A DNA stretch of 47,732 nucleotides from a virus. The translations under genes were made by a program, and so were the position numbers. Shown in pieces: positions 61-46,940 of this stretch (positions are counted from its first letter, which is position 1; every line of letters begins with the position of its first letter). The DNA lies in IMG/VR virus record IMGVR_UViG_3300043499_000136, positions 1-47,732 of that record; one strand, 5' to 3'. The notes under the pieces were generated by a model. It searched no databases, was not told where the DNA came from, and saw nothing but the letters and a program-made list of their open reading frames with translations.

Positions 61-107
61 TTGCAGCGACGGTTCTAAGCTGCTATGCTTAGCTAGCAAG
101 CAAGCAA
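61..107 (+). promoter_or_regulatory. Promoter with leader repeat, copy 1
   Basis: TTGCAG at 61-66, exactly 17 bp, then TATGCT at 84-89 preceded by TGC (extended -10). The spacer holds GACGGTTC at 68-75, which recurs at the same distance in three other copies. The leader has AGCAAGCAAGCAA at 95-107. It drives the genes from 128. Confidence 0.75.
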
Positions 108-127
108 CCTCTACCAAGGAGCAGCAA

Positions 128-442
128 ATGGAACAGTTCACAGCAATTACCCTTCGTCGCCCCGACGCAGACGCGGGGGACGAGGTCATCGGATGGATCA
201 GACACGGCGAGCACTGCGAGCATCGCAACTGCCTCAAGCAGCAGCGCGCTGGCCGTCGTTACCACGCAACGCCCGCCGGGTTCAGCATCACCGTCACGCC
301 GACCCACTACCACACCATCGATGATGCCGTCCGTGCCATCGAGGATGCGATGTACGGAATCCCCGGACGTCGCCCAGACCTGACCGTCGAGGAAGATACA
401 AACTGGAGCGAAGGTTCCTACCTCGTTTCAACCGACGCGTAA
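128..442 (+). CDS. Hypothetical protein (104 aa)
   Basis: Unrecognised small acidic protein with no membrane segment. It has a scattered Cys/His pattern (HGEHCEHRNC, residues 26-35) that might hold a metal but matches no family I know. The start is set by an AAGGAGCAGC ribosome site 3 nt upstream. It is the first gene of a four-gene operon (128-1437) behind the promoter at 61-89. Function unknown. Confidence 0.8.
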   Translation: MEQFTAITLRRPDADAGDEVIGWIRHGEHCEHRNCLKQQRAGRRYHATPAGFSITVTPTHYHTIDDAVRAIEDAMYGIPGRRPDLTVEEDTNWSEGSYLVSTDA

Positions 443-455
443 AGGAGCAGCTAGC

Positions 456-767
456 ATGCAAGCACGCACCGCATCACACCAGGACCTCAAGAACCTCGAG
501 CTCACGGACCACATCGCGATGCTCGTGGAGGACTGGAACGAACCAGATGATGTCGCCATTGGCACTTCGTCCATGTTCATCTGGCGCGACACCATCTACG
601 TCCACACACCGGTGACCATGAAGTTCAGAGGCGATGCCGAACACCGAGACAGCATCACAACCTCGATGGTCACTGCTACATACCGAGACAACAAGTGGGT
701 CGACATCGCTGTCTGGGACGAGGAGGGGGCGCTCTGCTACGCCACCGACTCGGGGAAGAACCGATGA
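456..767 (+). CDS. Hypothetical protein (103 aa)
   Basis: Unrecognised soluble protein. It has a beta-rich middle (residues ~40-90, alternating hydrophobic stretches such as SMFIWRDTIYVHTPV), suggesting a small alpha+beta fold. The start follows AAAGGAGCAGC. Its stop overlaps the next start in ATGA (764-767), so the two genes are probably translationally coupled. Confidence 0.8.
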   Translation: MQARTASHQDLKNLELTDHIAMLVEDWNEPDDVAIGTSSMFIWRDTIYVHTPVTMKFRGDAEHRDSITTSMVTATYRDNKWVDIAVWDEEGALCYATDSGKNR

Positions 768-1141
768 GCGCGATGCCGAAGAAGAGCAACACAGTCGAGA
801 CAACCGTCACGTACCCCGTCCGCTTCTATTTCATGGCGCCGGGGGATAGCAGCATCCGTCGCCGGTATCCGCGGACCTACCTCGTCTACGGAGCCGACCT
901 CAAGGGCAACAGGTTCAACGACCACTGCCTGGGGTACGTGTTGACCAAGGCGCGGTGGGGATACTGGGAGGCGCATGCGACCAAGAAGGACGGCGGCTTC
1001 TCGACCCGCAACGTGTCGCTGCTCCTCGGTCCCAACCCCACGGTAGCGCCGACACGGGAGGAAGCAGCCAAGGATCTGTTCCTGCATCTGCGCCGTCACG
1101 CAAGCGGGAAGAAGCTGCTGCTAGCTGCGGGGGTCCTCTGA
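764..1141 (+). CDS. Hypothetical protein (125 aa)
   Basis: Basic, unrecognised protein. The ATG at 764 is chosen because it overlaps the previous stop (ATGA); an upstream in-frame start at 695 would lie deep inside the preceding gene. No domain is recognised. It ends with a one-base overlap (TGATG) into the next gene, in keeping with a tight operon. Confidence 0.75.
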   Translation: MSAMPKKSNTVETTVTYPVRFYFMAPGDSSIRRRYPRTYLVYGADLKGNRFNDHCLGYVLTKARWGYWEAHATKKDGGFSTRNVSLLLGPNPTVAPTREEAAKDLFLHLRRHASGKKLLLAAGVL

Positions 1142-1437
1142 TGAACGCGCTCACCGAGAACGCGAGGGCGGTCCTCGTATCAGCAGCCCGCTTGCGTGGG
1201 GAGCCGCAGGAGATGTTCACAGCGAAGGACCTCGCGGACTTCCACAACAACCACGACCTCGAAGCGGGGAACCGTCCCACGGTGGTAGAGCGGGGACTGA
1301 AAACCTTCACTCTACCCGCGCTCATCCGACGGAACTATGCCTTCAAGTTCGACACGAACGGGGAGCCGCAGTACTGCCTCACCAACTCGGGCTTCGAGGA
1401 AGCGCTCATCATCACGGGCGGGCGGGGGCTGCTATAA
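1141..1437 (+). CDS. Hypothetical protein, possibly winged helix (98 aa)
   Basis: Unrecognised. The order of predicted helices followed by a short beta stretch (helix around MFTAKDLADFH, then YAFKFDTNGEPQYCLT) would suit a small winged-helix DNA-binding fold, but this is a weak visual inference. The start overlaps the previous stop. The 3' end (TGCTATAAT at 1430-1438) doubles as an extended -10 promoter for the next leader. Confidence 0.7.
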   Translation: MNALTENARAVLVSAARLRGEPQEMFTAKDLADFHNNHDLEAGNRPTVVERGLKTFTLPALIRRNYAFKFDTNGEPQYCLTNSGFEEALIITGGRGLL

Positions 1438-1438
1438 T
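1430..1438 (+). promoter_or_regulatory. Extended -10 promoter, copy 2
   Basis: TGC followed by consensus TATAAT (1433-1438), overlapping the end of the upstream gene. It is followed by GCTTAGCTAGC, close to the sequence after copy 1. No clear -35 is seen. It would produce a leader of about 180 nt before the gene at 1628. Confidence 0.5.
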
Positions 1439-1581
1439 GCTTAGCTAGCTTCGCACCAAACTCCGGCGGGAGTCTTGCTTGCTGCTCCGCTCTCGCCGTC
1501 GTAGGCACTTGGCCCTCCGGTATCGCGACTCCCGGGGGGCCTTGTTGCGGTCTCTACCAGTGAATCAAGTGCGACCGAAGA

Positions 1582-1606
1582 TGCTATGCTAGCTGCATGC
1601 AAGCAA
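1582..1606 (+). promoter_or_regulatory. Promoter with leader repeat, copy 3
   Basis: TGC-TATGCT (-10 at 1585-1590), followed directly by the leader repeat TGCATGCAAGCAA at 1594-1606. No good -35 is visible. It sits 38 nt upstream of the start codon at 1628. Confidence 0.6.
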
Positions 1607-1627
1607 CCGATCAAAGGAGGTGAGATA

Positions 1628-1840
1628 ATGGAAGCATCAGACCAAGCGACGACGAGGCAAGCAACCTCGGATGACCTGTTCGACGTGAGCGTCGAGGTTC
1701 GCGTCCAGTGCACGGGAGTTCCCGGGCCAGACGCACAGGCCACAGCGCGGCAGATGGTCGAGAACGCACTCTCGAACCAAGCGTCGCTGGAGTTCACGAT
1801 CGTGGACGTGGGCGAGCCGGACCACCGACAGGACTCGTAG
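1628..1840 (+). CDS. Hypothetical protein (70 aa)
   Basis: Unrecognised acidic protein with a beta-strand-like middle (DVSVEVRVQCTGV) then a helix (ATARQMVENALSNQASLEF). The start at 1628 follows a perfect AAAGGAGGTGA site; an in-frame ATG at 1586 lies before that site and inside the promoter. It is a single-gene operon between copy 3 promoter and a terminator. Confidence 0.75.
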   Translation: MEASDQATTRQATSDDLFDVSVEVRVQCTGVPGPDAQATARQMVENALSNQASLEFTIVDVGEPDHRQDS

Positions 1841-1845
1841 CAGCG

Positions 1846-1876
1846 AAGCCGTGGCCCTCCTTGGGTTGCGGCTTTT
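1846..1876 (+). terminator. Rho-independent terminator
   Basis: AAGCCG (1846-1851) pairs with CGGCTT (1869-1874), with inner GCCC/GGGT pairing, followed by a T run. It closes the single-gene operon at 1628-1840. Confidence 0.75.
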
Positions 1877-2189
1877 CTGCGGCTGCATGTGACGGTGCGC
1901 TAGCTGCGCTGCAAGCGCGCGCGCAAGCATGCATGCATGCGGACCCAGGAGCTAATATAAGCGCTGCTAAGCGCATCAAATTAGCGCAGCTAGGGGTATA
2001 GCTGCAATTTATTTAGAGGCCTTATATGCGCGCAAGGAGCTTCGCTATTAGCAAATGCTAACAGGCCCCCCACCGTAGGATCTAGCAGTTCCTAACGCGG
2101 GCCGACCCCCGCTTCCGAGACGCGAGGTGCAAGCAAGCTGTCTCAAGAGAGCGGAGGTCGGTGCTCACCGCAGGCCGAGAGGAGATCCC

Positions 2190-2220
2190 AGCTACCCGCA
2201 TTATAGCATCACGGGTAGCT
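2190..2220. repeat. Inverted repeat enclosing a leftward -10
   Basis: AGCTACCCG (2190-2198) and CGGGTAGCT (2212-2220) are perfect 9-bp arms. The 13-nt loop, read on the minus strand, contains TGC-TATAAT (2208 down to 2200), the same extended -10 as used on the plus strand at 2251. Confidence 0.7.
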
Positions 2221-2250
2221 CTCGAGCCACGTGTTGGCAGCGGAGCGGGA

Positions 2251-2259
2251 TGCGATGCT
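2251..2259 (+). promoter_or_regulatory. Extended -10 promoter for primase-helicase
   Basis: TGC followed by consensus TATAAT at 2254-2259, about 48 nt before the start at 2307. The hexamer 17 bp upstream (GTGTTG) is a poor -35, as expected for an extended -10 promoter. It lacks the GCAAGCAAGCAA leader. Confidence 0.6.
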
Positions 2260-2306
2260 ATAATCAAAGTGCAGGGGGTTTCACGTCAGTCAACCGAGAG
2301 GAGCAG

Positions 2307-4439
2307 ATGGGTGTCCATCCAACGACCGAGTTCATCAATCGCGTATGGGACGCACACGAGCGACCCGATAACGAAGAGCAGCATGCGTTCCTAGCTTTCT
2401 TCGACGATGACCATGTCTTCACAGAAAACCGGGTGGTTCGAGGTCAAGCAAAGACGCGGAAGCTTCTCCCGCCTCACGGGGGTGTCGATCTTTACTTCGC
2501 GCCATGCCTTTTCCGACGGAAGCGTCGTCGCAACGAGTACGCTCTCCCGGGGCGCTGGCTTTACGCTGACCTGGACGAAAGCGACCCCCGGAAACTCAAT
2601 CATCTGCCTCCTACAGTTGCGTGGGAGACGAGCCGCGGCAGGTATCAGTGCCTCTGGCGGCTTACCGAAGCTCTTCCTCCAGAGAAGCTAGCCTTCCTCA
2701 ACCAGCGGACCACGTACTTCACGGACGCGGATCGAGGCGGCTGGTCGCTCACTAAAGTGCTGCGTGTGCCCGGCTCTATCTCCACGAAGCACGGGGACGA
2801 CTTCCAAGTGCGGTTGATGTGGTGGAAGGACGAGCTTCAGTACGACCCGAAGGACATCCACACGCTCGTCCGCGGCATGAGAGTGCCGAAGCAGCACTAC
2901 CTCGAGCTGAGAGACGTGAAGTTCCCAAAAGCGCCACCCGGGAGGATCGTACGGCGCTTCAGAATCCCGCCACGGGCTAAGAAGCTGCTGCGCGCAACCG
3001 AGGCACGTGGTGACCGATCTGAGCGCCTCTGGTGCCTCTACGTGGACCTGCTGAGCGCCGGGATGAAGCCGGAGCAAGTGTTCGTGGTAGTGCGACCGAC
3101 GGTGTGGAACAAATACCGAGGACAGAAGAGGGAGATACCGCAGCTATGGAGCGAGATCAACAAAGCGGCAGCACAGACCGTGTCGGACTCACTGAAGAGC
3201 AAGTCACGGCGTTCATCCAAGCGGCCCGCCCAGTCCTCACGGCGTGGGTCGAAGCAACAAGACGAACCATCCAAGTCCTCGAAGACATCGCCAAGCAAGT
3301 CGAAGAAGCGCAAGCGAAAGCCCGAGACGGAGAACGGTCTTCCTGACTTCGAGCTTGACAGCAAGCTTCAGACCTTCGGCCAGTTCATGTCGAAGAAGAT
3401 CAGGAAGCCCGGCTGGATGGTGGAAGCGATTTGGGCAGAGGGGGCACACGGAATCCTCACCGGCGAAGCGAAGGCCTTCAAATCCGTCATCAGCACCGAC
3501 CTCGCGATCAGCGTAGCGAGCGGCTCTCCCTTCCTCAACAGCTTCAGCATCCCGTCGGTTGGGCCAGTCTTGATCATCCAGGAGGAGAACGACGAGGGGG
3601 AGTTCCAGGACAGAATCCACCGGATCATCGAGAGCCGGGGTCTCGGGGCGAGCGCGAGCTTCAGCAACGGCGGGGGGACGCTCCAGTTCAAGCCGACGGC
3701 GGACCTACCGATCCACACCTTGAGCAACGCCGGCTTCGACTTGACCCGGACGGACCACCTCGAGTGGCTCCAGAAGCAGGTCGTGAAGCACCAGCTGGCG
3801 TTGGTGATTCTCGATCCGTTCTACCTGATGACGCCCGGCGTGAACGAGAATGAGCAGGCGCAAGTGGCGCCAGTCTTGAAGAAGCTGCTCCGCCTGAAGC
3901 AGGCTCACGGGGTAGGAATCCAGATCATCCACCACTACAAGAAGCAGAACGTGTTAGCTCCAATCCACGGCGCGGCGCGTATGTCGGGTAGCTCTGTCTT
4001 CCACCGCTGGTTCGAGTCGGCGGTGTACGTGGAGAAGACTGAGGACCCGACGACCGTCAGGCTGATTCCGGATCACCGGGGGCAAGCGCCCCAAGGAGCG
4101 ATGAGGGTTTCCTTCGATCTCGGGACGCCAGACGACAGTGAGTACAACGTCTATGTCCATCAGGCCAAGGCCGATCGAGCCATGCTCCACAGCAGACTCC
4201 GGGAGATCATGAAGGACAATCCTGATGGCCTGCCGATCAGCCAGCTTCGAGTTCAGATGGGCATGGCAAGCAGCAAGCCGTTGAAGCAGATGGCTCGGGA
4301 TCAGGGTCTGATCGTCGAGAAGAGGAAGACCGGTTTGCGTGGCAGGCCCCAGATCATCGTCAGGCCGATGACGGAGCAAGGGCAGAAGAGCCGAGACACG
4401 CAGTATCGTGGCAAGGGGAAGCGGGGCCTCGATGGGTGA
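2307..4439 (+). CDS. RepB-like primase / RepA-like helicase fusion (710 aa)
   Basis: Predicted replication initiator combining a primase and a hexameric helicase. The N-terminal part (residues ~30-200) looks like the archaeo-eukaryotic RepB-type primase fold, with ADLD at 87-90 and RVPGS at 153-157. A Ser/Lys/Arg-rich linker (295-345) leads to a RepA/AAA_25-type ATPase: P-loop GEAKAFKS at 386-393, where the usual Gly before the second Lys is Phe; Walker B LVILD at 499-503; IIHHYKK at 540-546. The C-terminus (~640-700) is basic and may be a winged helix. The start at 2307 has GAGAGGAGCAG upstream; in-frame codons before it cross the promoter. It would prime and unwind DNA for the polymerase encoded at 31787-34174. 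Confidence 0.8.
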   Translation: MGVHPTTEFINRVWDAHERPDNEEQHAFLAFFDDDHVFTENRVVRGQAKTRKLLPPHGGVDLYFAPCLFRRKRRRNEYALPGRWLYADLDESDPRKLNHLPPTVAWETSRGRYQCLWRLTEALPPEKLAFLNQRTTYFTDADRGGWSLTKVLRVPGSISTKHGDDFQVRLMWWKDELQYDPKDIHTLVRGMRVPKQHYLELRDVKFPKAPPGRIVRRFRIPPRAKKLLRATEARGDRSERLWCLYVDLLSAGMKPEQVFVVVRPTVWNKYRGQKREIPQLWSEINKAAAQTVSDSLKSKSRRSSKRPAQSSRRGSKQQDEPSKSSKTSPSKSKKRKRKPETENGLPDFELDSKLQTFGQFMSKKIRKPGWMVEAIWAEGAHGILTGEAKAFKSVISTDLAISVASGSPFLNSFSIPSVGPVLIIQEENDEGEFQDRIHRIIESRGLGASASFSNGGGTLQFKPTADLPIHTLSNAGFDLTRTDHLEWLQKQVVKHQLALVILDPFYLMTPGVNENEQAQVAPVLKKLLRLKQAHGVGIQIIHHYKKQNVLAPIHGAARMSGSSVFHRWFESAVYVEKTEDPTTVRLIPDHRGQAPQGAMRVSFDLGTPDDSEYNVYVHQAKADRAMLHSRLREIMKDNPDGLPISQLRVQMGMASSKPLKQMARDQGLIVEKRKTGLRGRPQIIVRPMTEQGQKSRDTQYRGKGKRGLDG
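3146..3346 (+). CDS. Possible overlapping small gene inside the primase linker (66 aa)
   Basis: An alternative reading frame lies wholly inside the linker-coding part of the primase-helicase gene. The predicted peptide is amphipathic and helical (LTEEQVTAFIQAARPVLTAW, then IQVLEDIAKQVEEAQAKA), with GAGGGAG about 11 nt before its ATG. The main frame here is low complexity (Lys/Ser/Arg), and its codon pattern could by itself create such a helix in the other frame. Treat as a candidate only. Confidence 0.3.
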   Translation: MERDQQSGSTDRVGLTEEQVTAFIQAARPVLTAWVEATRRTIQVLEDIAKQVEEAQAKARDGERSS

Positions 4440-4685: not shown

Positions 4686-4726
4686 TTGCGGTGCAAGCTG
4701 CTAAGCTATATGCATGCAAGCAAGCA
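4686..4726 (+). promoter_or_regulatory. Promoter with leader repeat, copy 5
   Basis: Two readings are possible: TGC-TAAGCT (-10 at 4702-4707), matching the family, or TTGCGG (4686-4691), 17 bp, TATGCA (4709-4714). The leader repeat TGCATGCAAGCAAGCA follows at 4711-4726. It drives the genes at 4768 and 5168. Confidence 0.65.
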
Positions 4727-4767
4727 GCGCGCAAGCGCATCAACCGCAATCACAAGGAGCTCGCATC

Positions 4768-5130
4768 ATGGATCGCACCGCACGCATCGCAACAGATCAG
4801 CCGCAGCGCATCACCGTCGCACTCGAAGCGCTTAGCGAATGGCTCAACTCATTCAACCGCTTCGAGGGTGAGCTCGCATATACCGTCGCCCACTTCACCG
4901 ACACAAGCGACAACCCATATGCCAATCTCACCGTCGCACTCGATTGCACCGTCACATGCTCCGAGTTCGAACGCATCATGGTTCTCAACCTCGACACCGG
5001 AGATGACGGGGGTCCGCAGGTCATCACTACAACGTGGGTCGAGGATTCGCTCCACAGCATCACCCAGTTCTTCGACACAATGACCGCACTCGTCTACCAG
5101 GATCACACGCTCCAACTCGACGCCGCATAA
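4768..5130 (+). CDS. Hypothetical protein (120 aa)
   Basis: Unrecognised acidic protein, probably alpha+beta, with no signal or membrane segment. The ATG at 4768 follows ACAAGGAGCTCGCATC; an in-frame ATG at 4714 lies inside the leader repeat. First of two genes in a small operon; both use a GGAG(C/T)CGCATCATG start context, suggesting duplication or shared selection on the translation start. Confidence 0.75.
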   Translation: MDRTARIATDQPQRITVALEALSEWLNSFNRFEGELAYTVAHFTDTSDNPYANLTVALDCTVTCSEFERIMVLNLDTGDDGGPQVITTTWVEDSLHSITQFFDTMTALVYQDHTLQLDAA

Positions 5131-5638: not shown

Positions 5639-5645
5639 ACCCACC

Positions 5646-6174: not shown

Positions 6175-6183
6175 TGCTATAGT
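6175..6183 (+). promoter_or_regulatory. Extended -10 promoter before terminase small subunit
   Basis: TGC-TATAGT, with the -10 at 6178-6183. No clear -35 and no GCAAGCAAGCAA leader. It would start a transcript that immediately includes the hairpin at 6202-6237. Confidence 0.55.
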
Positions 6184-6201
6184 TTCTTCTGTTAGCGAAT
6201 C

Positions 6202-6243
6202 GGTCCGAGAATCCTGAAGCGTCACGGATCTCGGGCCATCTTT
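6202..6243 (+). terminator. Leader hairpin (attenuator or terminator) before terminase
   Basis: GGTCCGAGAATCC (6202-6214) pairs with GGATCTCGGGCC (6226-6237), with one bulged A and one G-T pair, followed by ATCTTT and the ATG at 6244. It lies about 20 nt after the -10 at 6178, in the position of an attenuator, and leaves no room for a ribosome site. Confidence 0.6.
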
Positions 6244-6921
6244 ATGAGTGCAGAAGCAACCGACAAACTCGACAAGTATCAACGCACCACTCTCACAGAC
6301 GACATGATTCGTCTCGCTGAGAAGACGGGGCGAAAGACCTCGAGGCGAATCGCGAAACAGACGAAGGCATTGACGGGTCGCCCCACTGCTCTGACTCCGC
6401 TCACTGCTCTTCGCATCATCGAGATGATCCTCGAAGGCAATCGCCCGAGAGCGGCGTGTGCTTCGGTGGGCATCACCAAGAGAACCTTCGATACGTGGAA
6501 GGCGCGAGCACGTGAGTGGATGGAACGCGAAGAGTTTGATGGCGACCTGGAGAAGGTGCCAGAACACGAGCGAATCTTCGTAGAGTTCACTCTGATGGTA
6601 GAGGCCGCGGAGGGCGAAGCTGAGCGTCTGATGTTGAAGAAGGCTCTGTCTGGAAAGAGAGGGTGGCAGGCGGCCGTGGCAGTCCTCGAAAGGCGATTCA
6701 GTGGCGGGTGGAGCAAGGAGAACGTTCACCGTCACGAAGTTGGCGGCGGAGAGCGGCCAATCGTCATCGAGATCGAGACTGATCAGGAGCGCGCGGCAGG
6801 CGTGGCGCATGTGCTGAACGAAGCGGGTGTGATTGACGGCACGGATTCGGCGCGGGAGATCACGGAGCGGAGCGGAGCGGCCGAGAACCAGGTCGAGGAG
6901 CAGGTCGAGACGCCTGGTTGA
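6244..6921 (+). CDS. terS: Terminase small subunit (225 aa)
   Basis: Recognises phage DNA and presents it to the large terminase for packaging. A helix-turn-helix lies at residues ~68-90 (AACASVGITKRTFDTWKARA), and WQAAVAVLERRF (141-152) matches the W-x-A-A-x-x-x-L-E-R-R segment common in small terminases. The C-terminal tail (~180-225) is acidic. The ATG at 6244 follows a hairpin with no visible ribosome site, which is unusual for a packaging gene. The large subunit is about 2.3 kb downstream, separated by small genes. Confidence 0.8.
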   Translation: MSAEATDKLDKYQRTTLTDDMIRLAEKTGRKTSRRIAKQTKALTGRPTALTPLTALRIIEMILEGNRPRAACASVGITKRTFDTWKARAREWMEREEFDGDLEKVPEHERIFVEFTLMVEAAEGEAERLMLKKALSGKRGWQAAVAVLERRFSGGWSKENVHRHEVGGGERPIVIEIETDQERAAGVAHVLNEAGVIDGTDSAREITERSGAAENQVEEQVETPG

Positions 6922-6930
6922 AGGTTCGTG

Positions 6931-6976
6931 TTGCATCAGGGCTCCGTAGCTGCTAGCTTATGCATGCAAGCAAGCA
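6931..6976 (+). promoter_or_regulatory. Promoter with leader repeat, copy 6
   Basis: TTGCAT (6931-6936), 17 bp, TAGCTT (6954-6959) preceded by TGC. The leader repeat TGCATGCAAGCAAGCA (6961-6976) follows, identical to that at 4711-4726. Confidence 0.7.
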
Positions 6977-6995
6977 CCGACAGAAGGAGCAACGC

Positions 6996-7202
6996 ATGTC
7001 ACTGGTCAACACAATCAGCATCGAGCCACAACAGCTCGCTGCCGCAACGCAATTCGTGGAGGATCACAACCTCCGGGACTTCAGCCTCATCACGCTCGAG
7101 GGTCGCCCCAACCTCTACATCCAGCTCGCCGGTTGTGAAGCGCCGGAAGCAACCGTCACACCTGACGGGACCGTCACGGACCACGCTCGCTCAACCGTCT
7201 AA
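6996..7202 (+). CDS. Hypothetical protein (68 aa)
   Basis: Unrecognised small soluble protein, with a central beta-like segment (FSLITLEGRPNLYIQLAG). The start at 6996 follows AGAAGGAGCAACGC; the in-frame ATG at 6960 is inside the leader. Single-gene operon with its own promoter and terminator. Confidence 0.75.
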   Translation: MSLVNTISIEPQQLAAATQFVEDHNLRDFSLITLEGRPNLYIQLAGCEAPEATVTPDGTVTDHARSTV

Positions 7203-7579: not shown

Positions 7580-7623
7580 TGCTATGCCTGCTTATGGGCG
7601 ATACTTGTTATGCAAGCAAGCAA
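7580..7623 (+). promoter_or_regulatory. Promoter with leader repeat, copy 7
   Basis: TGC-TATGCC (-10 at 7583-7588) or TATGCA (7609-7614) are the candidate -10 elements. The leader repeat TATGCAAGCAAGCAA spans 7609-7623. Spacing between -10 and leader repeat differs from other copies, so the exact start is uncertain. Confidence 0.5.
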
Positions 7624-7646
7624 TCCCCACGAAAGGGGCGCATGAC

Positions 7647-7820
7647 ATGGCAACCAGCACAAAGCGGATCACGGTTCAGGACTACTGCGCGAAGCACAAC
7701 CAGCCTCAGCGCAAGGTTCGGCGCCATACGCGAGCGCTTGGCATGGGCGTCGGGCGCGGCAAGCGCTACGGACTCACGGCGGCTGACCAGCGCAAGCTCA
7801 GCAAGTCGCTAGGCATCTAG
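7647..7820 (+). CDS. Small helix-turn-helix protein (57 aa)
   Basis: Predicted DNA-binding protein consisting of little more than one domain. After a short N-terminus comes VQDYCAKHNQPQRKVRRHTR, then GKRYGLTAADQRKLSKSL, which fits a MerR/Lsr2-like helix-turn-helix followed by a RY-x-[FL]-T turn and a last helix. The same module ends the proteins at 41533-42234 and 42642-43148. The start at 7647 follows GAAAGGGGCGCATGAC. Single gene between its own promoter and terminator; candidate regulator or nucleoid-type protein. Confidence 0.7.
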   Translation: MATSTKRITVQDYCAKHNQPQRKVRRHTRALGMGVGRGKRYGLTAADQRKLSKSLGI

Positions 7821-34174: not shown

Positions 34175-34610
34175 GTGCCATCTCCAAGTCGATGAGCGCT
34201 AGCTCCTTCTTGAGACTCTTGTCTCCGAAGTGGAACGCAAGCCAGCGGAAGATGTAGTCGGGGATGCTGTGGCAGTACGGAATGTGGGGGTTATCCGTCT
34301 CCCCATTCGGCTCGAATCGCATGTGTGCGAACTTACGAGCGAGCATCGGTAGCTCCGCACCGAACTGGAAGCCGATTGACGCCATGATCGCGAAGGCGTT
34401 GATCATCCCCTCCATCGTACTCCCTGTCGAGCCGAAGCCGTGGATGAACAGCTCACCAAGTGATCCATCCGCCTGCCGGTTGGCGGTGAGATATCCCGTG
34501 AAGTTGCCGATCTCTACTTTGTGGGTGATCCCTTCCCGGTCAGTAGGTAGTAACTTACGGTCAGGACCTACCTCTCCCTCCATGGTGTCCTCGGCATGTG
34601 GCTCAGTCAT
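34167..34610 (-). CDS. Stand-alone class II ribonucleotide reductase C-terminal domain (147 aa)
   Basis: Residues ~18-130 resemble the extreme C-terminal part of adenosylcobalamin-dependent NrdJ: a GITHKVEIGNFTGYLTAN strand pair, GSTMEGMINAFAIMAS helix, KFAHMRFEPNGETDNPHI, then SIPDYIFRWLAFHFG. The catalytic barrel of the reductase is absent from the window, so it cannot reduce nucleotides alone; it may bind nucleotides, modulate host reductase, or be a remnant. The start at 34610 overlaps the dCMP deaminase stop. Homology is from memory of the family. Confidence 0.7.
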   Translation of the reverse strand: MTEPHAEDTMEGEVGPDRKLLPTDREGITHKVEIGNFTGYLTANRQADGSLGELFIHGFGSTGSTMEGMINAFAIMASIGFQFGAELPMLARKFAHMRFEPNGETDNPHIPYCHSIPDYIFRWLAFHFGDKSLKKELALIDLEMARG

Positions 34611-35137
34611 CAATGCACCTGATTCGTGAACTGGTAGTCCGGCCCCGGGTCCCAATGCTGGTTACCCATCAGGATGATCTCCAGGCCAGCGTCGTCGAGG
34701 ATGTCGAGCCTCCCGGCCCGATACTCCTTCACGTAGACGAACTGGGTAATCCCCGCGGCAACGATGAGTTGAGCACAGGAACGGCACGGGCTGTATGTAC
34801 ACCACATAGCTGCACCGTGGGTTGCGATTCCGAAACTGGCTGCCCAGGCAATCGCATTTGACTCCGCGTGGATCGCTCGGGTGCAACCCTCTGCGAATTT
34901 GCACCGATCGGAGAACGCCTCGCTCTCGCAGATGCCACAGGTGCAGACGTGGTCATCTACTTCACAGCCTACGTCAAGGCAGTGAGCCATCCCGGGCGGT
35001 GAGCCGTTGTACCCCTCGGCGATCACGCGGTTCTTACGAACGATGAGCGCCCCTACCTGTCCACGCTCACAGCTTGATCGTTGCTCCAGCAGCTGGAGGC
35101 GTCCGAGTAGGTACTGCTCTCTAGTTAGTCGTGCCAT
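34610..35137 (-). CDS. dCMP deaminase (175 aa)
   Basis: Converts dCMP to dUMP, feeding thymidylate or modified-pyrimidine synthesis. Zinc site: HAE at 90-92 and PCRSC at 117-121. The substrate segment GYNGSPPGMAHC (42-53) and the extra Cys-rich loop (58-85) are typical of phage and eukaryotic dCMP deaminases. Full length. Encoded next to two thymidylate-synthase-fold genes. Confidence 0.9.
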   Translation of the reverse strand: MARLTREQYLLGRLQLLEQRSSCERGQVGALIVRKNRVIAEGYNGSPPGMAHCLDVGCEVDDHVCTCGICESEAFSDRCKFAEGCTRAIHAESNAIAWAASFGIATHGAAMWCTYSPCRSCAQLIVAAGITQFVYVKEYRAGRLDILDDAGLEIILMGNQHWDPGPDYQFTNQVH

Positions 35138-35939
35138 ATGCCCTCTCCATTCTCTTGCGATCTCCTTCGAAGTAGTGGAGGCTCATGATGTGCATCGTGA
35201 GCTTCCCGATTGCGATTCCCCCGAACTGCGTGTCGACCCCGGCTTCCACCAGCATCTCGTTCATCCACTGGCCGAGCCGGACCGCCATGTAGACGTCGTC
35301 GCAGAAGTGGCGGACGAAGTCGACGCTGCGGATCATGTAGGTCACCGACAGCTCTTGCTCACGGATCATGAAGTGGTAGCCCAGTGAGCAGGGCACCCGC
35401 TCTCCGTGGTGTGCCCCGGTGTCCTCGGGGAACCAGATTGGCAGGAAAGCCTGACGAGTGAGTGGCTCCCGCATCAGCAGGCCTGCCACGTCCCCGAGAT
35501 CGCCATAGCGGAAGCGGATGCCCTGGTGAACATCACAGCGATCAGGAGCATGCTTCGGCCACATGCGCTCGGGGTACGTGTGCGAGTACTGAGGCTCCTT
35601 CCCCCCGAAGTCCTTGAGGTGCCGGCTCGCCACTCCGTCATCCAACCAGCGTTGTGCGGAGGGCGGGGGATTCAGCGGCCTTCCGGACACCCGCTCGAGA
35701 AAGTGCTCCTCGGCCCATGGCATCTGCGGATCGATGACCTCCTGCGCCTTCTCGACGCTGTGAGGCATCTCGAAGCTGAGACTGACGTCCTGCAACTCGT
35801 AGCTCACGTGGGCGGGTGAGTTGCTTACGTCCACAGCGTGCCACGTGGGTACGGGGACTTCGACTCCTTTCTTCAGCAGGTCCCTGCCGATCGTTCGGAA
35901 GATGTACGGATAGCTACCCTCATACGTCTGCATCGTCAT
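35121..35939 (-). CDS. Thymidylate synthase-fold protein 1, putative pyrimidine hydroxymethylase (272 aa)
   Basis: Folate-dependent transferase acting on a pyrimidine nucleoside monophosphate at C5. Nucleophile C184 in VPCSLGYHF; phosphate-binding TRQAF (161-165) and RSVD (204-207). By hand alignment, residue 215 (11 after R204) falls where thymidylate synthase has the Asn that reads uracil, and here it is Asp, as in T4 dCMP hydroxymethylase. So a cytosine substrate and hydroxymethyl product are inferred. Sequence otherwise diverges from ThyA, which leaves open a plain dUMP methylase. Start at 35939 overlaps the upstream gene by 20 bases; an ATG at 35933 is an alternative. Confidence 0.7.
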   Translation of the reverse strand: MTMQTYEGSYPYIFRTIGRDLLKKGVEVPVPTWHAVDVSNSPAHVSYELQDVSLSFEMPHSVEKAQEVIDPQMPWAEEHFLERVSGRPLNPPPSAQRWLDDGVASRHLKDFGGKEPQYSHTYPERMWPKHAPDRCDVHQGIRFRYGDLGDVAGLLMREPLTRQAFLPIWFPEDTGAHHGERVPCSLGYHFMIREQELSVTYMIRSVDFVRHFCDDVYMAVRLGQWMNEMLVEAGVDTQFGGIAIGKLTMHIMSLHYFEGDRKRMERAYGTTN

Positions 35940-41111: not shown

Positions 41112-41294
41112 CTACTCCGCGGGCGTGACGGTGACCGTGAGGTCCTCGGGGTTCCCGAGCTTCTCGGCCGCGTCCTTCTTGAGGTAGAGCTTGCCGATGG
41201 CAGGGTCATCCCCGTCCTCCGCGTAGCGGAACGTTCCCTTGGTCTCCTTCTCCTTGGTGAAGGAAATGGAGAGGGACTTCTCCTTCTTGGCCAT
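41112..41294 (-). CDS. Hypothetical protein (60 aa)
   Basis: First gene of the leftward operon, with a perfect ribosome site (ATAAGGAGGGCCAA). Compact alpha/beta peptide (SLSISFTKEKETKGTFRYAE, then IGKLYLKKDAAEKLG). Similar short proteins are widespread in actinophages as I remember, but the function is unknown. Confidence 0.7.
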   Translation of the reverse strand: MAKKEKSLSISFTKEKETKGTFRYAEDGDDPAIGKLYLKKDAAEKLGNPEDLTVTVTPAE

Positions 41295-41338: not shown

Positions 41339-41351
41339 GCTTGCAGCAAGC
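41339..41351. promoter_or_regulatory. Palindromic operator candidate, leftward copy
   Basis: GCTTGC-A-GCAAGC, a perfect 6-bp palindrome around one A, lying just after the leftward -10. It shares its core with the palindrome at 41450-41466. Confidence 0.6.
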
Positions 41352-41378
41352 ATAAAGCATTGAATTGCTCGCTGTCCA
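41349..41378 (-). promoter_or_regulatory. Leftward promoter of the replication operon
   Basis: On the minus strand: TGGACA (41378 down to 41373), 17-18 bp, then TTATGCT (TATGCT at 41354 down to 41349). Followed by the palindrome at 41339-41351 and the gene starting at 41294. Confidence 0.65.
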
Positions 41379-41442: not shown

Positions 41443-41451
41443 TGCTATATT
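41443..41451 (+). promoter_or_regulatory. Rightward promoter, copy 8
   Basis: TGC-TATATT with -10 at 41446-41451, no good -35. Diverges from the leftward promoter about 70 bp away. The -10 overlaps the palindrome at 41450, so a protein bound there should block it. Confidence 0.55.
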
Positions 41452-41466
41452 GCTTGCAGCAAGCAA
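41450..41466. promoter_or_regulatory. Palindromic operator candidate, rightward copy
   Basis: TTGCTTGC-A-GCAAGCAA, a perfect 17-bp palindrome. Its right half is the GCAAGCAA core of the leader repeats found after the other promoters. Confidence 0.65.
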
Positions 41467-41492
41467 CCCAGCTCACCGTCGCAAGGAGACCC

Positions 41493-41540
41493 ATGCATAT
41501 GCGCGCAGTATATTTTCTCGTGAAGCGGCCACATGCCTGA
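41493..41540 (+). CDS. Possible leader peptide (15 aa)
   Basis: Starts at an ATG with a good GCAAGGAGACCC ribosome site, reads MHMRAVYFLVKRPHA and ends 8 bases inside the next gene. The only good ribosome site in this leader belongs to it, so it may feed ribosomes to the gene at 41533. It may instead be a mis-set gene start. Confidence 0.4.
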   Translation: MHMRAVYFLVKRPHA

Positions 41541-42427: not shown

Positions 42428-42456
42428 CGCCCAGAAAGCGGTGAAGGATTCAGGTG

Positions 42457-42465
42457 TGCTAAGCT
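42457..42465 (+). promoter_or_regulatory. Extended -10 promoter, copy 9
   Basis: TGC-TAAGCT (-10 at 42460-42465), preceded by GGATTC 8 bp upstream, a degenerate form of the GACGGTTC box. No leader repeat. The leader of about 180 nt (42466-42641) holds no supported gene. Confidence 0.5.
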
Positions 42466-42641
42466 TTACCCCACAGTGGACAACAATCTACAGATGCCCA
42501 AAGCATCCGCAAGCGAGAGAGGTGATAGTCAACTCAGTAGACCCGCCGGATCGGAAGCGCGTGTTCCGGGTACCACGGGTCGGACGCGCAAAGTTCGTAG
42601 CCGTATCAATCACAAAGCTACATACACCTAAGGAGGGTAAA

Positions 42642-43148
42642 GTGGCGAAGAAGAGGACCAGGAAGAAGGCAAAGCCCGAGACCGAGGTCGAGGAGACCGA
42701 GGAGCTCGAGGACCTGGAGGATCTCGACGAGCTCGAGGACCTCGAGGACACGGACGACGACGACGATTCCGAGGAGGAGGAGCCGGAGGACGAGGACGAG
42801 GACTCCGACGACGACGACGAGGATGACGACGACGAGGACGAGGACGACGACGACGAGGAGGAGGCTCCGAAGAAGAAGTCCAAGAAGTCCAAGTCGAAGG
42901 GCAAGTCGAAGAAGGGCAAGAAGGGCAAGTCCCGCAAGGGCCAGGCCCCTCCGACCCGCGAACTCCCGAAGGGCCGCTACGGCGCCCAGGAGATCGCCGA
43001 CATCGCCGACGTCGACGCCCGCGCCGTCCGGGTGTTCCTCCGGAAGGACGAGAACAAGGAGAAGTACCCCAAGGACGAGGAGCTGGGGCGCTACTCCTTC
43101 ACGAAGGCGACCGCGGAGAAGATCGCCAAGCGGATCAAGAAGGGCTAG
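42642..43148 (+). CDS. Acidic/basic-tract HTH protein (168 aa)
   Basis: GTG start at 42642 after AAGGAGGGTAAA; an open frame extends upstream to 42441 but would cover the promoter and lacks a ribosome site. Domains: Asp/Glu-rich region (~13-74), Lys/Ser/Gly-rich region (77-99) and a helix-turn-helix (~112-167, YGAQEIADIADVDARAVRVF with GRYSFTKATAEKIAKRIK) like those at 7647 and 41533. Resembles an Lsr2-type nucleoid protein in layout. The acidic run could mimic DNA or hold protein partners. Confidence 0.7.
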   Translation: MAKKRTRKKAKPETEVEETEELEDLEDLDELEDLEDTDDDDDSEEEEPEDEDEDSDDDDEDDDDEDEDDDDEEEAPKKKSKKSKSKGKSKKGKKGKSRKGQAPPTRELPKGRYGAQEIADIADVDARAVRVFLRKDENKEKYPKDEELGRYSFTKATAEKIAKRIKKG

Positions 43149-43765: not shown

Positions 43766-43768
43766 CCA

Positions 43769-43808
43769 GGACGGTTCATTGCTGCTATGCTTATAGCTGC
43801 AAGCAAGC
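43769..43808 (+). promoter_or_regulatory. Promoter with leader repeat, copy 10
   Basis: GACGGTTC starts at 43770, 8 bp before TATGCT (43786-43791) with TGC in front. Leader repeat GCAAGCAAGC at 43799-43808. Lacks the TTGC -35, which argues that the GACGGTTC box matters by itself. Confidence 0.7.
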
Positions 43809-43829
43809 CACAGCCTGAAGGAGGGCTAA

Positions 43830-44219
43830 ATGGATAAGCAGCAGATTCGCTCTGCACTTCGAGAGATCGAGGCGGAGCGGAAAACCCTCGACAAGCGGGA
43901 GAAGGCGCTCAACGCTTTGCTCCTCACATTCGAGGAACCGGAGAAGCCGAGAGTTCGGCGGACCACGGGAAAAGTACGTGACCGTGAAGTACTCGACCTG
44001 ATCCGCTCCAACCCGAACAAGGAGTGGAACAACCGAGAGGTCGCCGACTGCACGGGCATGCCGTACACCTCGGCCGGATCATCGATGATCCGGCTAGCGG
44101 AGGCGCACCAGGTCACAGTGATCGGGGACTGGGAGACGGAGCCGGGTAGCCGGGTCGCTCCAGTCATCAAGCACAAGCCAGTTCGCATCGTGCCGGGCAA
44201 GAGCCGGAAAGCAGCATGA
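43830..44219 (+). CDS. Coiled-coil and winged-helix protein (129 aa)
   Basis: N-terminal coiled coil (IRSALREIEAERKTLDKREK, ~6-35), then a helix-turn-helix-like domain (~48-100: REVLDLIRSNPNKEWNNREV with a following recognition-type helix YTSAGSSMIRLAEAH). Likely a dimeric DNA-binding regulator. AAGGAGGGCTAA ribosome site. First of a dense operon to 45590. Confidence 0.65.
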   Translation: MDKQQIRSALREIEAERKTLDKREKALNALLLTFEEPEKPRVRRTTGKVRDREVLDLIRSNPNKEWNNREVADCTGMPYTSAGSSMIRLAEAHQVTVIGDWETEPGSRVAPVIKHKPVRIVPGKSRKAA

Positions 44220-44900: not shown

Positions 44901-45280
44901 TGAAAGTGGAGTACCACGACGCCGACCACTTCAAGTGCAACGACCTGCGACGGTGGAAGCTTTCACTGTGGGGCGGCATCAGCATCCGCTTGCATCACTG
45001 GGTGGAGGGTGATCCACGGGAGTACCAGCATTCGCATCCGTGGAACTTCCTGACCCTGGTGTTGCGGGGCGGATATACCGACGTGGGGGACAACCGGCCC
45101 GATGACACGGTGCGCGCTCCCGCTGTGCGCTTGCGTAGTAGCGAATGGCGGCACTCGGTGGTCCAGGTTTTGCCCGGCACCTGGTCCGTAGTGATTACCG
45201 GCCGGATCATCGATCGGTGGAAGTTCTGGATCGGGAGATGGCGCGTCAACGAGGAGGAGTGGAATGAACGAGAGTGTTAG
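44900..45280 (+). CDS. Cupin-like protein (126 aa)
   Basis: Single beta-barrel of cupin type: HSHPWNFLTLVLRGGYTDVG (residues ~44-63) gives the first metal-binding motif and WRHSVVQVLPGTWSVVITG the second. Function in phage is unknown; could be a sugar-nucleotide or small-molecule enzyme, or a binding protein. TGATG overlap upstream, 17-base overlap downstream. Confidence 0.6.
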   Translation: MKVEYHDADHFKCNDLRRWKLSLWGGISIRLHHWVEGDPREYQHSHPWNFLTLVLRGGYTDVGDNRPDDTVRAPAVRLRSSEWRHSVVQVLPGTWSVVITGRIIDRWKFWIGRWRVNEEEWNEREC

Positions 45281-45590
45281 ACCGATCTACCACCACGTGT
45301 TGCCCGAGGGTATCTACGACGTGAAGGTAGTTCAACTGGTCCCAGACGTCAGTGTGTCACAGAGGGCTTTCACTCGCATCATCCTTCAGTGGATCGGCAC
45401 GGATCGCCAGATCATTGCTGTGGTCAGCTCGGCGCGGGAGGTTGCATGGAGCGTTCACGCGTGGGGCGCGCCGGACTATGACAACCTCAACGTGATCATG
45501 GGCTGTCGTTACAAGGTCCAGATCACTCACGAGGTCTACGAGCAGAAGGCGCGGGAACGCGTGAACGTTCTTGCCTTGATTACGGAGTAG
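45264..45590 (+). CDS. Hypothetical protein (108 aa)
   Basis: Unrecognised, beta-rich (IYDVKVVQLVPDVSVSQRAF). AACGAGGAGGAGTGGA precedes its ATG. Last gene of the 43830-45590 operon. Confidence 0.65.
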   Translation: MNESVRPIYHHVLPEGIYDVKVVQLVPDVSVSQRAFTRIILQWIGTDRQIIAVVSSAREVAWSVHAWGAPDYDNLNVIMGCRYKVQITHEVYEQKARERVNVLALITE

Positions 45591-45600
45591 CAAATCCGTG

Positions 45601-45648
45601 TTGCATTGACGGTTCAGGTATGCTAAGCTGCACCCGAGCAGCAAGCAA
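45601..45648 (+). promoter_or_regulatory. Promoter with leader repeat, copy 11
   Basis: TTGCAT (45601-45606), 17 bp containing GACGGTTC (45608-45615), TGC, then TAAGCT (45624-45629). Leader AGCAGCAAGCAA at 45637-45648 and ribosome site GAAGGAGCAGC. One of the three best matches to the shared architecture. Confidence 0.8.
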
Positions 45649-45662
45649 TCCGAAGGAGCAGC

Positions 45663-45815
45663 ATGCTTACACCCCGGGAAAATCAAGCTGTCACGCAAGT
45701 GGTAGTTAGCGACAACCTCCGTCTTTGGGCACTCGCCATCTACTTCGCGTATCACCACCCCGACCTCCTCGTCATCGCCCAGCAGGAGATCGAGGACCGA
45801 GCCGCACTCAACTAA
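45663..45815 (+). CDS. Hypothetical protein (50 aa)
   Basis: Short helical protein (NLRLWALAIYFAYHHPDLLV) with a strong AAGGAGCAGC ribosome site directly after a leader-repeat promoter. Function unknown. Confidence 0.65.
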   Translation: MLTPRENQAVTQVVVSDNLRLWALAIYFAYHHPDLLVIAQQEIEDRAALN

Positions 45816-45825
45816 GGAGCAGACC

Positions 45826-45996
45826 ATGGAACATCACCAGATGGAGCAGTTCTACCAGCAATGGGCCATCGAGGAGCAGCGCCACAACGAGTCGATCCTC
45901 TGGCTCAAGGTCCTCGGATTCATCGGCCTCGCACTCGCACTGCTGATGGTGACTTGCACCCTGTCCATCGTCCTCGCAGTCAAGGATGTGATCTGA
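45826..45996 (+). CDS. Small membrane protein (56 aa)
   Basis: His/Gln-rich N-terminus (MEHHQMEQFYQQW) and one membrane segment (VLGFIGLALALLMVTCTLSI). AAGGAGCAGACC before the ATG. Stop overlaps the next ATG. Confidence 0.65.
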   Translation: MEHHQMEQFYQQWAIEEQRHNESILWLKVLGFIGLALALLMVTCTLSIVLAVKDVI

Positions 45997-46322
45997 TGAA
46001 GCGCACATTCACACCTGCGGAGATGGAGCAGCGCCTCCGTGCAGCGCAGATCGGCAAGGTCACCGTCGAGGCATCAGCCATCAGTGGCTCTCCCTACGAC
46101 TACGTCTACGTGTACTTCACGGAGCGGGAAGCGGAAGACTGGCACCTCATCGTCTCGGACAACTACGAGATGGGGGACGGGCCGGGGATCGTGGTGGGGC
46201 TGCATCAGCACTACGAGGAGGCATGCCGCCACGTCGAGGTCATCCCGCCCGGGGGTCCGGAGGTCTTCCAGGTCATCGCGTCGCTCATGATCCAACTACT
46301 CATCGAGGAGGTATTCAGCTAA
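45996..46322 (+). CDS. Hypothetical protein (108 aa)
   Basis: Unrecognised alpha/beta protein (KVTVEASAISGSPYDYVYVY, then a C-terminal hydrophobic helix VFQVIASLMIQLLIEEVF). Overlaps both neighbours by one base. Confidence 0.65.
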   Translation: MKRTFTPAEMEQRLRAAQIGKVTVEASAISGSPYDYVYVYFTEREAEDWHLIVSDNYEMGDGPGIVVGLHQHYEEACRHVEVIPPGGPEVFQVIASLMIQLLIEEVFS

Positions 46323-46546
46323 TGCCGATGGGACACACCGTCATCGACATGACCGACCCAGTTCGTCGCGAACTCGTTGGGCTCGCTCAGCTCAAGGGGA
46401 TGCTCTCGATGCACAAGGCCGGCCTTCGTCGGAGTCGCTCACCGCAAGCAACTACGATCGCTCGCAACGCGGGCTACCGTGGAAACATCGACAAGCAACT
46501 CGCCGCCGTGAAGGAGCGAATTGCAGAACTGGAGACGCAGCTATGA
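46322..46546 (+). CDS. Hypothetical protein (74 aa)
   Basis: Unrecognised basic protein ending in a helix (KQLAAVKERIAELETQL) that could form a coiled-coil dimer. ATG overlaps the previous TAA; ATGA overlap with the next gene. Confidence 0.65.
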   Translation: MPMGHTVIDMTDPVRRELVGLAQLKGMLSMHKAGLRRSRSPQATTIARNAGYRGNIDKQLAAVKERIAELETQL

Positions 46547-46902
46547 ACAAGACCAAGGTGAATGAGGTCCTGATCGAGGACTTCAAGTTCGAGGGGGGCG
46601 CAGCAAGCCTCCACTTCCCCGACCGTGCCGAGGACAAGAACAGCTTCATCCTCGACATCGGGAGCGATCCGAGCAAGATGGGCATCGAGGCTTGGGTGAC
46701 CGTCGAAGGGGAGTTGAACAGCAATCCCGACGGGTGGAACGTCTTCCAGATCGCCGTTCAACTCCGTCACAGCTACACCAAATCCATCTCCCTCGCGGAC
46801 ATCGACAACATCGACAAGGACCTCGGAGAGTTCCCGGACCTCCTAGCGATAGCGCAGCGCGCTCTTGATGCAATCCTCGAGAAGCATCCCGAGTTGCGCT
46901 GA
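46543..46902 (+). CDS. Hypothetical protein (119 aa)
   Basis: Unrecognised acidic protein with a beta-rich front (VLIEDFKFEGGAASLHFPDR and on) and helical end. Last gene of the 45663-46902 operon. Confidence 0.65.
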   Translation: MNKTKVNEVLIEDFKFEGGAASLHFPDRAEDKNSFILDIGSDPSKMGIEAWVTVEGELNSNPDGWNVFQIAVQLRHSYTKSISLADIDNIDKDLGEFPDLLAIAQRALDAILEKHPELR

Positions 46903-46940
46903 CGGTTCAAAGGTGCTAAGCTGCATTTAGCAGCAAGCAA
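46894..46940 (+). promoter_or_regulatory. Promoter with leader repeat, copy 12
   Basis: TTGCGC (46894-46899), 17 bp with GACGGTTC (46901-46908), TGC, TAAGCT (46917-46922). Leader AGCAGCAAGCAA at 46929-46940 and GGAAGGAGCAGCAA ribosome site. The -35 lies in the end of the previous gene. Confidence 0.8.

What the first reader, a model, noticed from the sequence alone, without database searches (positions are those of the whole stretch)
61..46940. Dispersed promoter-leader-ribosome-site module shared by about a dozen small operons
Copies at 61, 45601 and 46894 share TTGC, 17 bp, TAWGCT; GACGGTTC sits exactly 8 bp before the -10 in these and at 43770; TGC precedes nearly all -10s (also 1430, 1582, 2251, 4699, 6175, 6951, 41443, 42457). 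Many leaders then carry GCAAGCAAGCAA and an AAGGAGCAGC ribosome site. Accessory operons across 47 kb are therefore wired to one signal set. It recalls start-associated sequences of cluster K mycobacteriophages but the sequence is different.
Basis: seen in the sequence. Interest (0 to 1): 0.8.

Follow-up and report, generated by a model that had tools for sequence, protein, structure and literature searches.

The report
Shared promoter-leader modules and anti-leader RNA
A phage's small operons share one promoter-leader-ribosome-site module, and the phage also appears to carry a small hairpin RNA whose loop is complementary to that shared leader, so one RNA could tune many phage genes at once.

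Summary
They fit host sigma-A extended -10 promoters. Downstream genes include primase/helicase and small terminase, not only accessory ones. Relatives lack these sequences; several carry modules of their own.

New lead: one family promoter (1430-1438) has no ORF behind it and precedes a predicted ~100-nt RNA. Its hairpin loop is the best complement to nine tagged leaders among 94,736 genomic 15-mers, covering the SD of the strongest targets. There is no experimental support. In mycobacteriophage Anaya the only inverted SAS also sits in a hairpin loop, conserved in 10 of 23 cluster K records examined; the other 13 lack it, evidence against generality.

Verdict: real feature, a new variant of SAS/ESAS-like wiring, with a testable RNA hypothesis.

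The parts
54..130 (+). full module: CGTGTTGCA, GACGGTTC (68-75), TGC-TATGCT (81-89), tag GCAAGCAAGCAA (96-107), SD AAGGAGCAGC (116-125), ATG 128
1430..1449 (+). extended -10 TGCTATAAT (1430-1438) and +1 region sharing ATGCTTAGCTAGC with the module at 61; no ORF behind it
1445..1546 (+). predicted ~100-nt non-coding RNA (5' end inferred from the -10)
   Evidence: fold z -2.75, 2 of 200 shuffles fold as well; no Rfam family at gathering score
1464..1498 (+). 10-bp hairpin with loop CTTGCTTGCTGCTCC (1474-1488), complementary to leader tags and SDs; 2 bp inside the loop are predicted
1507..1546 (+). terminator-like hairpin GGCCCTCCGG / CCGGGGGGCC then TTGTT (weak T tail)
   Evidence: -22.5 kcal/mol; not found by the consensus scan, whose loop limit is 8
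1582..1630 (+). module: TGC-TATGCT, ATGCAAGCAA, AAAGGAGG, ATG 1628; no box
2256..2309 (+). TGC-TATAAT promoter of primase/helicase gene 2307; no tag
4699..4770 (+). module: TGC-TAAGCT, ATGCAAGCAAGCAG, ATG 4768
6175..6246 (+). TGC-TATAGT promoter of small terminase gene 6244; no tag
6924..6998 (+). degenerate full module: CGTGTTGCAT, 17 bp, TAGCTT, tag GCAAGCAAGCA, AAGGAGCA, ATG 6996
7597..7649 (+). tag GCAAGCAAGCAA (7612-7623) with a poor -10, ATG 7647
41339..41378 (-). minus-strand copy: TGGACA-18-TATGCT, TGCT, GCAAGC; points into the replication operon beginning at 41294
41443..41495 (+). module: TGC-TATATT, palindrome TTGCTTGCAGCAAGCAA, AAGGAG, ATG 41493
42441..42471 (+). GGATTCAGGTG-TGCTAAGCT promoter with a long leader to 42642; no tag
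43770..43832 (+). GACGGTTC, TGC-TATGCT, tag GCAAGCAAGC, AAGGAGG, ATG 43830; no TTGC
45594..45665 (+). full module; GAGCAGCAAGCAA tag and AAGGAGCAGC SD, ATG 45663
46887..46962 (+). full module; AGCAGCAAGCAA tag and GGAGCAGCAAGTG SD/start, GTG 46960

Best explanation
The repeated unit is a family of phage promoters read by the host's housekeeping RNA polymerase: TGC plus TAnnnT (extended -10), with a TTGC -35 in the fullest copies. Each is coupled to a transcript that in the tagged copies starts at or within a few nt of a GCAAGCAA tag and runs 27-54 nt (170 nt at 42642) to a strong Shine-Dalgarno. Four promoters carry a GACGGTTC box in the spacer, most likely an operator or activator site for an unidentified phage DNA-binding protein. 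I propose that the tag and SD are also the address for a phage antisense RNA: promoter 1430 would make a ~100-nt RNA whose hairpin loop CUUGCUUGCUGCUCC pairs with the SD (128, 456, 46960) or the 5' tag (45663 and others). The expected effect is lower translation of the best-matched operons, including the RNA's own upstream operon, and weaker or different effects where only the 5' tag can pair. SHOWN by sequence: the module, its enrichment and the complementarity. PREDICTED: transcription starts, hairpin, terminator. INFERRED: regulation by RNA pairing and by the box. My probabilities: promoter family 0.85, box is a regulator site 0.5, RNA exists 0.5, RNA acts on the leaders 0.3-0.35.
For: Blocks enriched upstream of genes. 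TANNNT is the mycobacterial -10 and TGN raises promoter activity (PMC3898074, passages). The tag starts 0-2 nt from the predicted +1 in 6 of the 8 tagged modules that have a TGC-extended -10, and 4-5 nt in the other two. The loop scores first of 94,736 15-mers for summed complementarity to nine tagged leaders, after minus-strand windows over leaders were dropped. 1 of 2000 shuffles of that intergenic region does as well. In a hairpin scan of the window, 15 relatives and the right part of Anaya, the window's loop matches 7 of 74 leaders at 9 bp or more; the best loops of the relatives match 0-4, the 4 (G029) and a 13 in Anaya being antisense to a leader of their own. Loop-letter shuffles reach 7 in 9 of 1000. 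Net pairing energy is -17.5 (46960), -14.4 (45663), -13.1 (456) and -11.3 (128), against a mean of -1.0, sd 4.2, for 63 control leaders. Promoter 1430 shares 13 bp with the module at 61. Parallel: Anaya's inverted SAS is in a hairpin loop.
Against: No transcription data and no relative with the same module, so no covariation test in the window. Random genomic stretches in place of loops reach 7 in 93 of 1000 runs, a null that can include the site itself. The fold z-score is modest (-2.75), 2 bp are predicted inside the loop, and the terminator has a poor T tail. For 8 of the 11 module leaders scored, net pairing is weak (-2.7 to -8.6), and one control (5168) reaches -11.6. A cofold calculation gave almost no gain, but it cannot represent loop pairing. 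The syntenic relative G001 has its own tag but no exact antisense copy of it at a non-leader site. In cluster K, sister phages keep SAS without the antisense loop.
Confidence: 0.42

Rival explanations
1. Ordinary strong host-type promoters plus an unstructured A-rich leader that helps translation or mRNA stability. The complementary hairpin loop is coincidence or a relic, and the 1430-1546 stretch is the 3' end and terminator of the 128-1437 operon.
For: Nearly all -10s fit the host consensus. Relatives have repeated modules of other sequence without an antisense copy, e.g. G001 CCTATGCAC, 4 of 4 exact copies non-coding and ahead of an SD-like AGGAG. The complementarity statistics are only moderate once search freedom is counted.
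Against: Does not explain why one family promoter points at a non-coding hairpin, nor why its loop is the best genome-wide complement and spans tag plus SD.
Confidence: 0.42
2. The module is mainly a transcriptional regulon: a phage DNA-binding protein recognises GACGGTTC (and perhaps the GCATGC/GCTAGC palindromic words around +1), like stoperators or ESAS inverted repeats. Not exclusive of the others.
For: GACGGTTC is kept in register in four promoters while neighbouring bases vary, even at 43770 where TTGC is lost. A weakly regulator-like protein lies behind one of the family promoters (41533: phrog_66 at 5.6e-4; HTH_17 below its cut-off).
Against: Only 4 of 12 promoters have the box, and 41533 is not one of them. 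No repressor or integrase was identified in the proteins scanned. No stoperator consensus above chance (6 with 2 mismatches, 2.5 expected, none in the modules).
Confidence: 0.4
3. The similarity reflects copying of intergenic cassettes by recombination, with no shared control.
For: Promoters 61 and 1430 share 13 bp, and three copies share CGTGTTGCA.
Against: Similarity is confined to functional-looking blocks in fixed register, while spacers vary.
Confidence: 0.18

Closest known systems
SAS and ESAS of cluster K mycobacteriophages (PMC3203893 and PMC11373665, passages read)
   Same: Repeated RBS element a few nt before starts of many non-structural genes; a subset with an upstream conserved element described as a SigA-like promoter; mostly one orientation; Anaya's one inverted copy lies in an intergenic hairpin loop.
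   Different: Sequence unrelated; here the shared element also includes a 5' tag at the predicted start of transcription; the GACGGTTC box is a single non-palindromic site, not an inverted repeat.
c4 antisense RNA of phages P1/P7 (PMC12197685, passage read)
   Same: Phage antisense RNA thought to present complementary sequence in loops and to bind around the ribosome binding site of a phage mRNA.
   Different: c4 acts on ant mRNA; the RNA proposed here would act in trans on many leaders, and is unproven.
Staphylococcus aureus RNAIII (PMC2837412, search listing and start of abstract only; C-rich loops that block SDs are recalled)
   Same: One RNA with hairpin loops pairing to the translation start of several mRNAs.
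   Different: Bacterial, much longer, unrelated.
Repeats upstream of ATG starts in Gordonia cluster DJ phages (PMC9753669, passage read)
   Same: Multiple intergenic repeats upstream of starts, suggested to be regulatory.
   Different: Sequences not given in the passage; they lie downstream of the tape measure gene; no RNA proposed there.

Membership tests
Cluster K SAS/ESAS | 13-bp GGGATAGGAGCCC, up to 2 deviations, next to gene starts | tested here: not met
   0 matches in the window
Cluster K SAS/ESAS | repeat at the RBS position of many non-structural genes, one orientation | tested here: met
   AAGGAGCA 6 of 8 and GCAAGCAA 10 of 17 in upstream zones; one minus-strand module points at minus-strand genes
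Cluster K SAS/ESAS | 17-bp imperfect inverted repeats upstream of the SAS (ESAS) | tested here: not met
   Upstream block is a single GACGGTTC, by inspection of the listed modules
Host sigma-A extended -10 promoter | TGN immediately before TANNNT at the -10 position | tested here: met
   12 of the 14 sites tabulated, including 1430; exceptions 7597 and the minus-strand site
Host sigma-A extended -10 promoter | transcription start 7-12 bp downstream, mapped | not testable with these tools
   no RNA data for this contig
Cluster A stoperators | 13-bp GGTGGMTGTCAAG sites (consensus recalled) | tested here: not met
   6 matches with 2 mismatches, 2.5 expected; none in a module
Phage trans-acting antisense RNA | own promoter, non-coding, folded, terminated | tested here: inconclusive
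   TGCTATAAT, no ORF with a usual start, z -2.75, terminator with weak T tail
Phage trans-acting antisense RNA | seed complementary to target translation starts | tested here: met
   8-13 exact bp to 9 of 9 tagged leaders; rank 1 of 94,736
Phage trans-acting antisense RNA | changes target expression | not testable with these tools
   needs experiment
Rfam families | match at gathering score | tested here: not met
   0 matches in the window

The most novel reading that the evidence does not exclude
Some actinophages wire many operons with one shared leader/RBS and encode a small RNA whose hairpin loop is the antisense of that shared element, giving one RNA control of a whole phage regulon. The window's 1445-1546 RNA and the inverted-SAS hairpin of Anaya-type cluster K phages would be two independent cases, and would give the SAS elements (role described as unknown in PMC3203893 and PMC11373665) a function.
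Probability: 0.25. Interest if true: 0.85.

Novelty: new variant of a known kind. Interest (0 to 1): 0.58.

Why it matters
Repeated leader/RBS elements in phage genomes have been described since 2011 without an agreed function. Pope et al. left open whether SAS bind an RNA or a protein. The lone antisense copy displayed in a hairpin loop, seen here and in Anaya-type phages, turns that question into a simple test: delete or change the hairpin and measure the SAS- or tag-led genes. If true, it would be an RNA-level master switch for a phage regulon.

Tried and rejected
1) Exact full module elsewhere: GACGGTTC-N5-TGCTAWGCT in IMG/VR gave one hit (L005) lying inside a terminase-like gene, read as chance. 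TGCTAWGCT-N2..14-GCAAGCAAGC gave 3 hits (L128-L130), all inside called genes, read as chance. TTGC-N3-GACGGTTC-N5-TGCTAWGCT gave 0 in the genome collection.

2) Close relatives: near-DNA search of the left half (1-24000) against phages found none; the right half was not searched that way. Single-protein scans with terminase and DNA polymerase found none. A three-sequence polymerase alignment gave 80 loci, best 54-55% identical. Twenty-nine of the 80 were searched for the motifs, and 15 records were read (60,000 of 62,308 bases for one, all of the rest).

3) Cofold of hairpin with leaders was rejected as a test because it cannot represent loop pairing; replaced by duplex plus opening energies.

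4) Generality in cluster K: 23 records fetched of 188 hit. 10 of 23 have the CTCCTATCC loop in the homologous hairpin. Of the other 13, five (Yuna, Marshawn, SirPhilip, Scarlett, MarkPhew) are classed Anayavirus too. Three Unicornvirus records (Bryler, Sunflower1121, PhelpsODU) have a changed loop sequence CTCCCTTCC although they keep 15-16 GGATAGGAG copies. Rando14's single forward copy is at 1150, outside this region. So the antisense loop is not universal in cluster K.

5) Covariation in that alignment is supportive but thin: 92.6% of cells paired versus 37-47% when slid, 2 pairs changed on both sides, but 'further pair types' and the number of pairs changed on both sides do not exceed shuffles.

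6) RNA-based replication origin as the role of the RNA (PMC7157519 passages): not pursued beyond reading; the window was not tested for parABS.
Full report
WHAT THE WINDOW IS. The window is a single virus record of 47,732 bases, 61% G+C, with no tRNA. Among the 30 rows listed, its DNA polymerase is 36-41% identical to those of Gordonia, Streptomyces and Curtobacterium phages and of an environmental myovirus, with the same neighbourhood of exonuclease and AAA genes. A simple gene call gives 74 genes: structural genes on the + strand at about 8-28 kb, a replication operon on the minus strand at about 28-41 kb, and small + strand genes at both ends.

THE OBSERVATION. All the coordinates given were checked; one is off by 5 (2251, really 2256). 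The blocks are CGTGTTGC or TTGC, 17 bp, TAnnnT; GACGGTTC ending 8 bp before the -10 (four sites); TGC directly before the -10 (12 of 14 tabulated sites); GCAAGCAA; and AAGGAGCA. Measured against the 3.1% of positions that are non-coding and within 120 nt upstream of a called start, TGCTAWGCT falls there in 6 of 7 cases, GCAAGCAA in 10 of 17, AAGGAGCA in 6 of 8 and GACGGTTC in 4 of 7. The looser TGCTANNNT is there in 9 of 18. A count of all upstream 10-mers also puts TGCAAGCAA-like and TGCTATGCT-like words on top. These are post hoc P values but far from chance. Missed copies are at 6931-6959 (TTGCAT, 17 bp, TAGCTT), at 7597-7623 (tag with a poor -10), and on the minus strand at 41378-41339, pointing into the replication operon.

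WHAT IT IS. The -10s match the TANNNT motif found at 73% of primary starts in M. tuberculosis, where TGN before it raises activity and no -35 motif was found (PMC3898074, passages). Host polymerase can therefore plausibly read them, though the host of this phage is not known. If transcription starts 7 nt after the hexamer, the mRNA begins within 2 nt of the tag in 6 of 8 tagged modules with a TGC-extended -10, and within 4-5 nt in the other two. So the 'leader repeat' is best seen as a 5'-terminal tag. Genes behind the modules are mostly of no known family but include a primase/helicase (2307) and a small terminase (6244). GACGGTTC sits in the promoter spacer in four cases and is kept even where TTGC is lost (43770), which suggests a protein site; the protein is unknown.

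RELATIVES. Of 80 polymerase relatives in IMG/VR, 29 were searched. TGCTAWGCT occurs in 10 of 29, with at most 3 copies per record. GCAAGCAAGCAA with up to one mismatch occurs in 2 of 29. Several relatives have repeated upstream elements of their own: G029 has GGATCGTGTATAAT with CGAAAGGAG; G010 has GGATTTGATAyrAT; G001, which shares several genes with the window, has CCTATGCAC soon after a -10-like word in three of its four exact copies, all four non-coding and ahead of an SD-like AGGAG. So the module class appears to persist while its sequence turns over.

THE NEW LEAD. The promoter at 1430-1438 is one of only three exact TGCTATAAT copies and shares 13 bp with the module at 61, yet no ORF with a usual start follows it closely (the frame of gene 1213 stays open past its stop). 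The next 100 nt fold (z -2.75; 2 of 200 shuffles as good) into a 10-bp hairpin at 1464-1498, then a terminator-like hairpin at 1511-1541 with TTGTT. The hairpin's 15-nt loop is CTTGCTTGCTGCTCC. It is complementary over 8-13 exact bases to all nine tagged leaders, and ranks first of 94,736 genomic 15-mers on both strands after minus-strand windows over leaders were dropped. Shuffles of the intergenic region match it in 1 of 2000. A separate scan asked, for every hairpin in the window, 15 relatives and the right part of Anaya, how many leaders its loop could pair with over 9 bp or more: the window's loop reaches 7 of 74. That scan did not recover Anaya's own hairpin, whose inner stem is shorter than its limit. 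With loops antisense to leaders dropped (832 of 865 kept), loop-letter shuffles reach 7 in 9 of 1000 runs, but random genomic stretches do so in 93 of 1000, a null that can pick the site itself. With opening energies, the best targets are 46960 (-17.5; 14 bp over SD and GTG), 45663 (-14.4), 456 (-13.1; second gene of the first operon) and 128 (-11.3). The other 8 of 11 module leaders scored are at -2.7 to -8.6; 63 controls average -1.0, sd 4.2, best -11.6. The three strongest promoter-proximal targets are exactly the three full modules with GACGGTTC and TTGC.

A PARALLEL. Pope et al. (PMC3203893, passages) describe SAS, note that four K1 phages each have a single inverted SAS not obviously at a gene start, and leave open whether SAS bind an RNA or a protein. 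In Anaya that copy lies in the gp96-gp97 gap, in the apical loop (CCTCCTATCC) of a strong hairpin. The hairpin and an invariant loop core are found in 10 of 23 cluster K records fetched, out of 188 hit. On those ten (9 distinct), 92.6% of cells pair versus 37-47% when slid, and 2 pairs change on both sides; this is thin support. Against the parallel: the other 13 of 23 lack the loop, including three with a related sequence and a changed loop, and all 13 still have SAS cores. No Rfam family fits the window at gathering score, and relaxed searches of both regions gave only weak matches below gathering score.

LITERATURE. SAS function was still described as not known in 2024 (PMC11373665, passages), where ESAS are called SigA-like promoters. 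The main texts of PMC3203893 and PMC12699233 contain no 'small RNA'. My searches listed no report that I recognised as an antisense-SAS or anti-leader RNA; they cover only the open library. c4 RNA of P1/P7 is the nearest precedent (PMC12197685, passage).

VERDICT. The module is real and more than chance. It is a new variant of SAS/ESAS-like wiring, not a member of that family. The anti-leader RNA is an inference from sequence that one blot and one reporter pair can settle.

Noticed in passing
window 41493-41540: A 15-codon ORF (MHMRAVYFLVKRPHA) with its own SD follows promoter 41443; its stop overlaps the start of gene 41533, suggesting translational coupling or a leader peptide.
   Followed up: no
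window 1841-2306: 466-nt non-coding stretch rich in GCATGC/GCTAGC/TTAGCGC words and A+T-rich patches before the primase/helicase gene, with TGCTATAAT on both strands (2208 minus, 2256 plus); a candidate replication origin.
   Followed up: no
window 41450-41466: Perfect palindrome TTGCTTGCAGCAAGCAA overlapping the start region of promoter 41443, in the divergent control region of the replication operon.
   Followed up: no
window 34167-35939 (minus): Nucleotide-metabolism genes: TSCPD domain (34167), deoxycytidylate deaminase (34610), sub-threshold thymidylate synthase match (35121); the environmental relative MW202455 has thymidylate and 'pyrimidine hmase' synthase genes next to its polymerase, so base modification is possible.
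   Followed up: partly
L131:34683-35067 (Anaya 59682-60066): The gp96-gp97 gap of Anaya-type phages holds conserved, apparently structured non-coding DNA with at least two strong hairpins; the second carries the antisense SAS.
   Followed up: partly
G029 (loci L100-L102), G010 (L097-L099), G001 (L088-L090): Each relative has its own repeated promoter/RBS words: GGATCGTGTATAAT with CGAAAGGAG; GGATTTGATAyrAT; CCTATGCAC tag.
   Followed up: partly
L091:7947-7964: In relative G003 an intergenic hairpin with 14 pairs has a loop complementary over 9 bp to three leaders.
   Followed up: no
window 42642-43148: Protein with a very long Asp/Glu run followed by a basic stretch and a possibly DNA-binding C-terminus; 61% identical over 61 residues to one in G001.
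   Followed up: no
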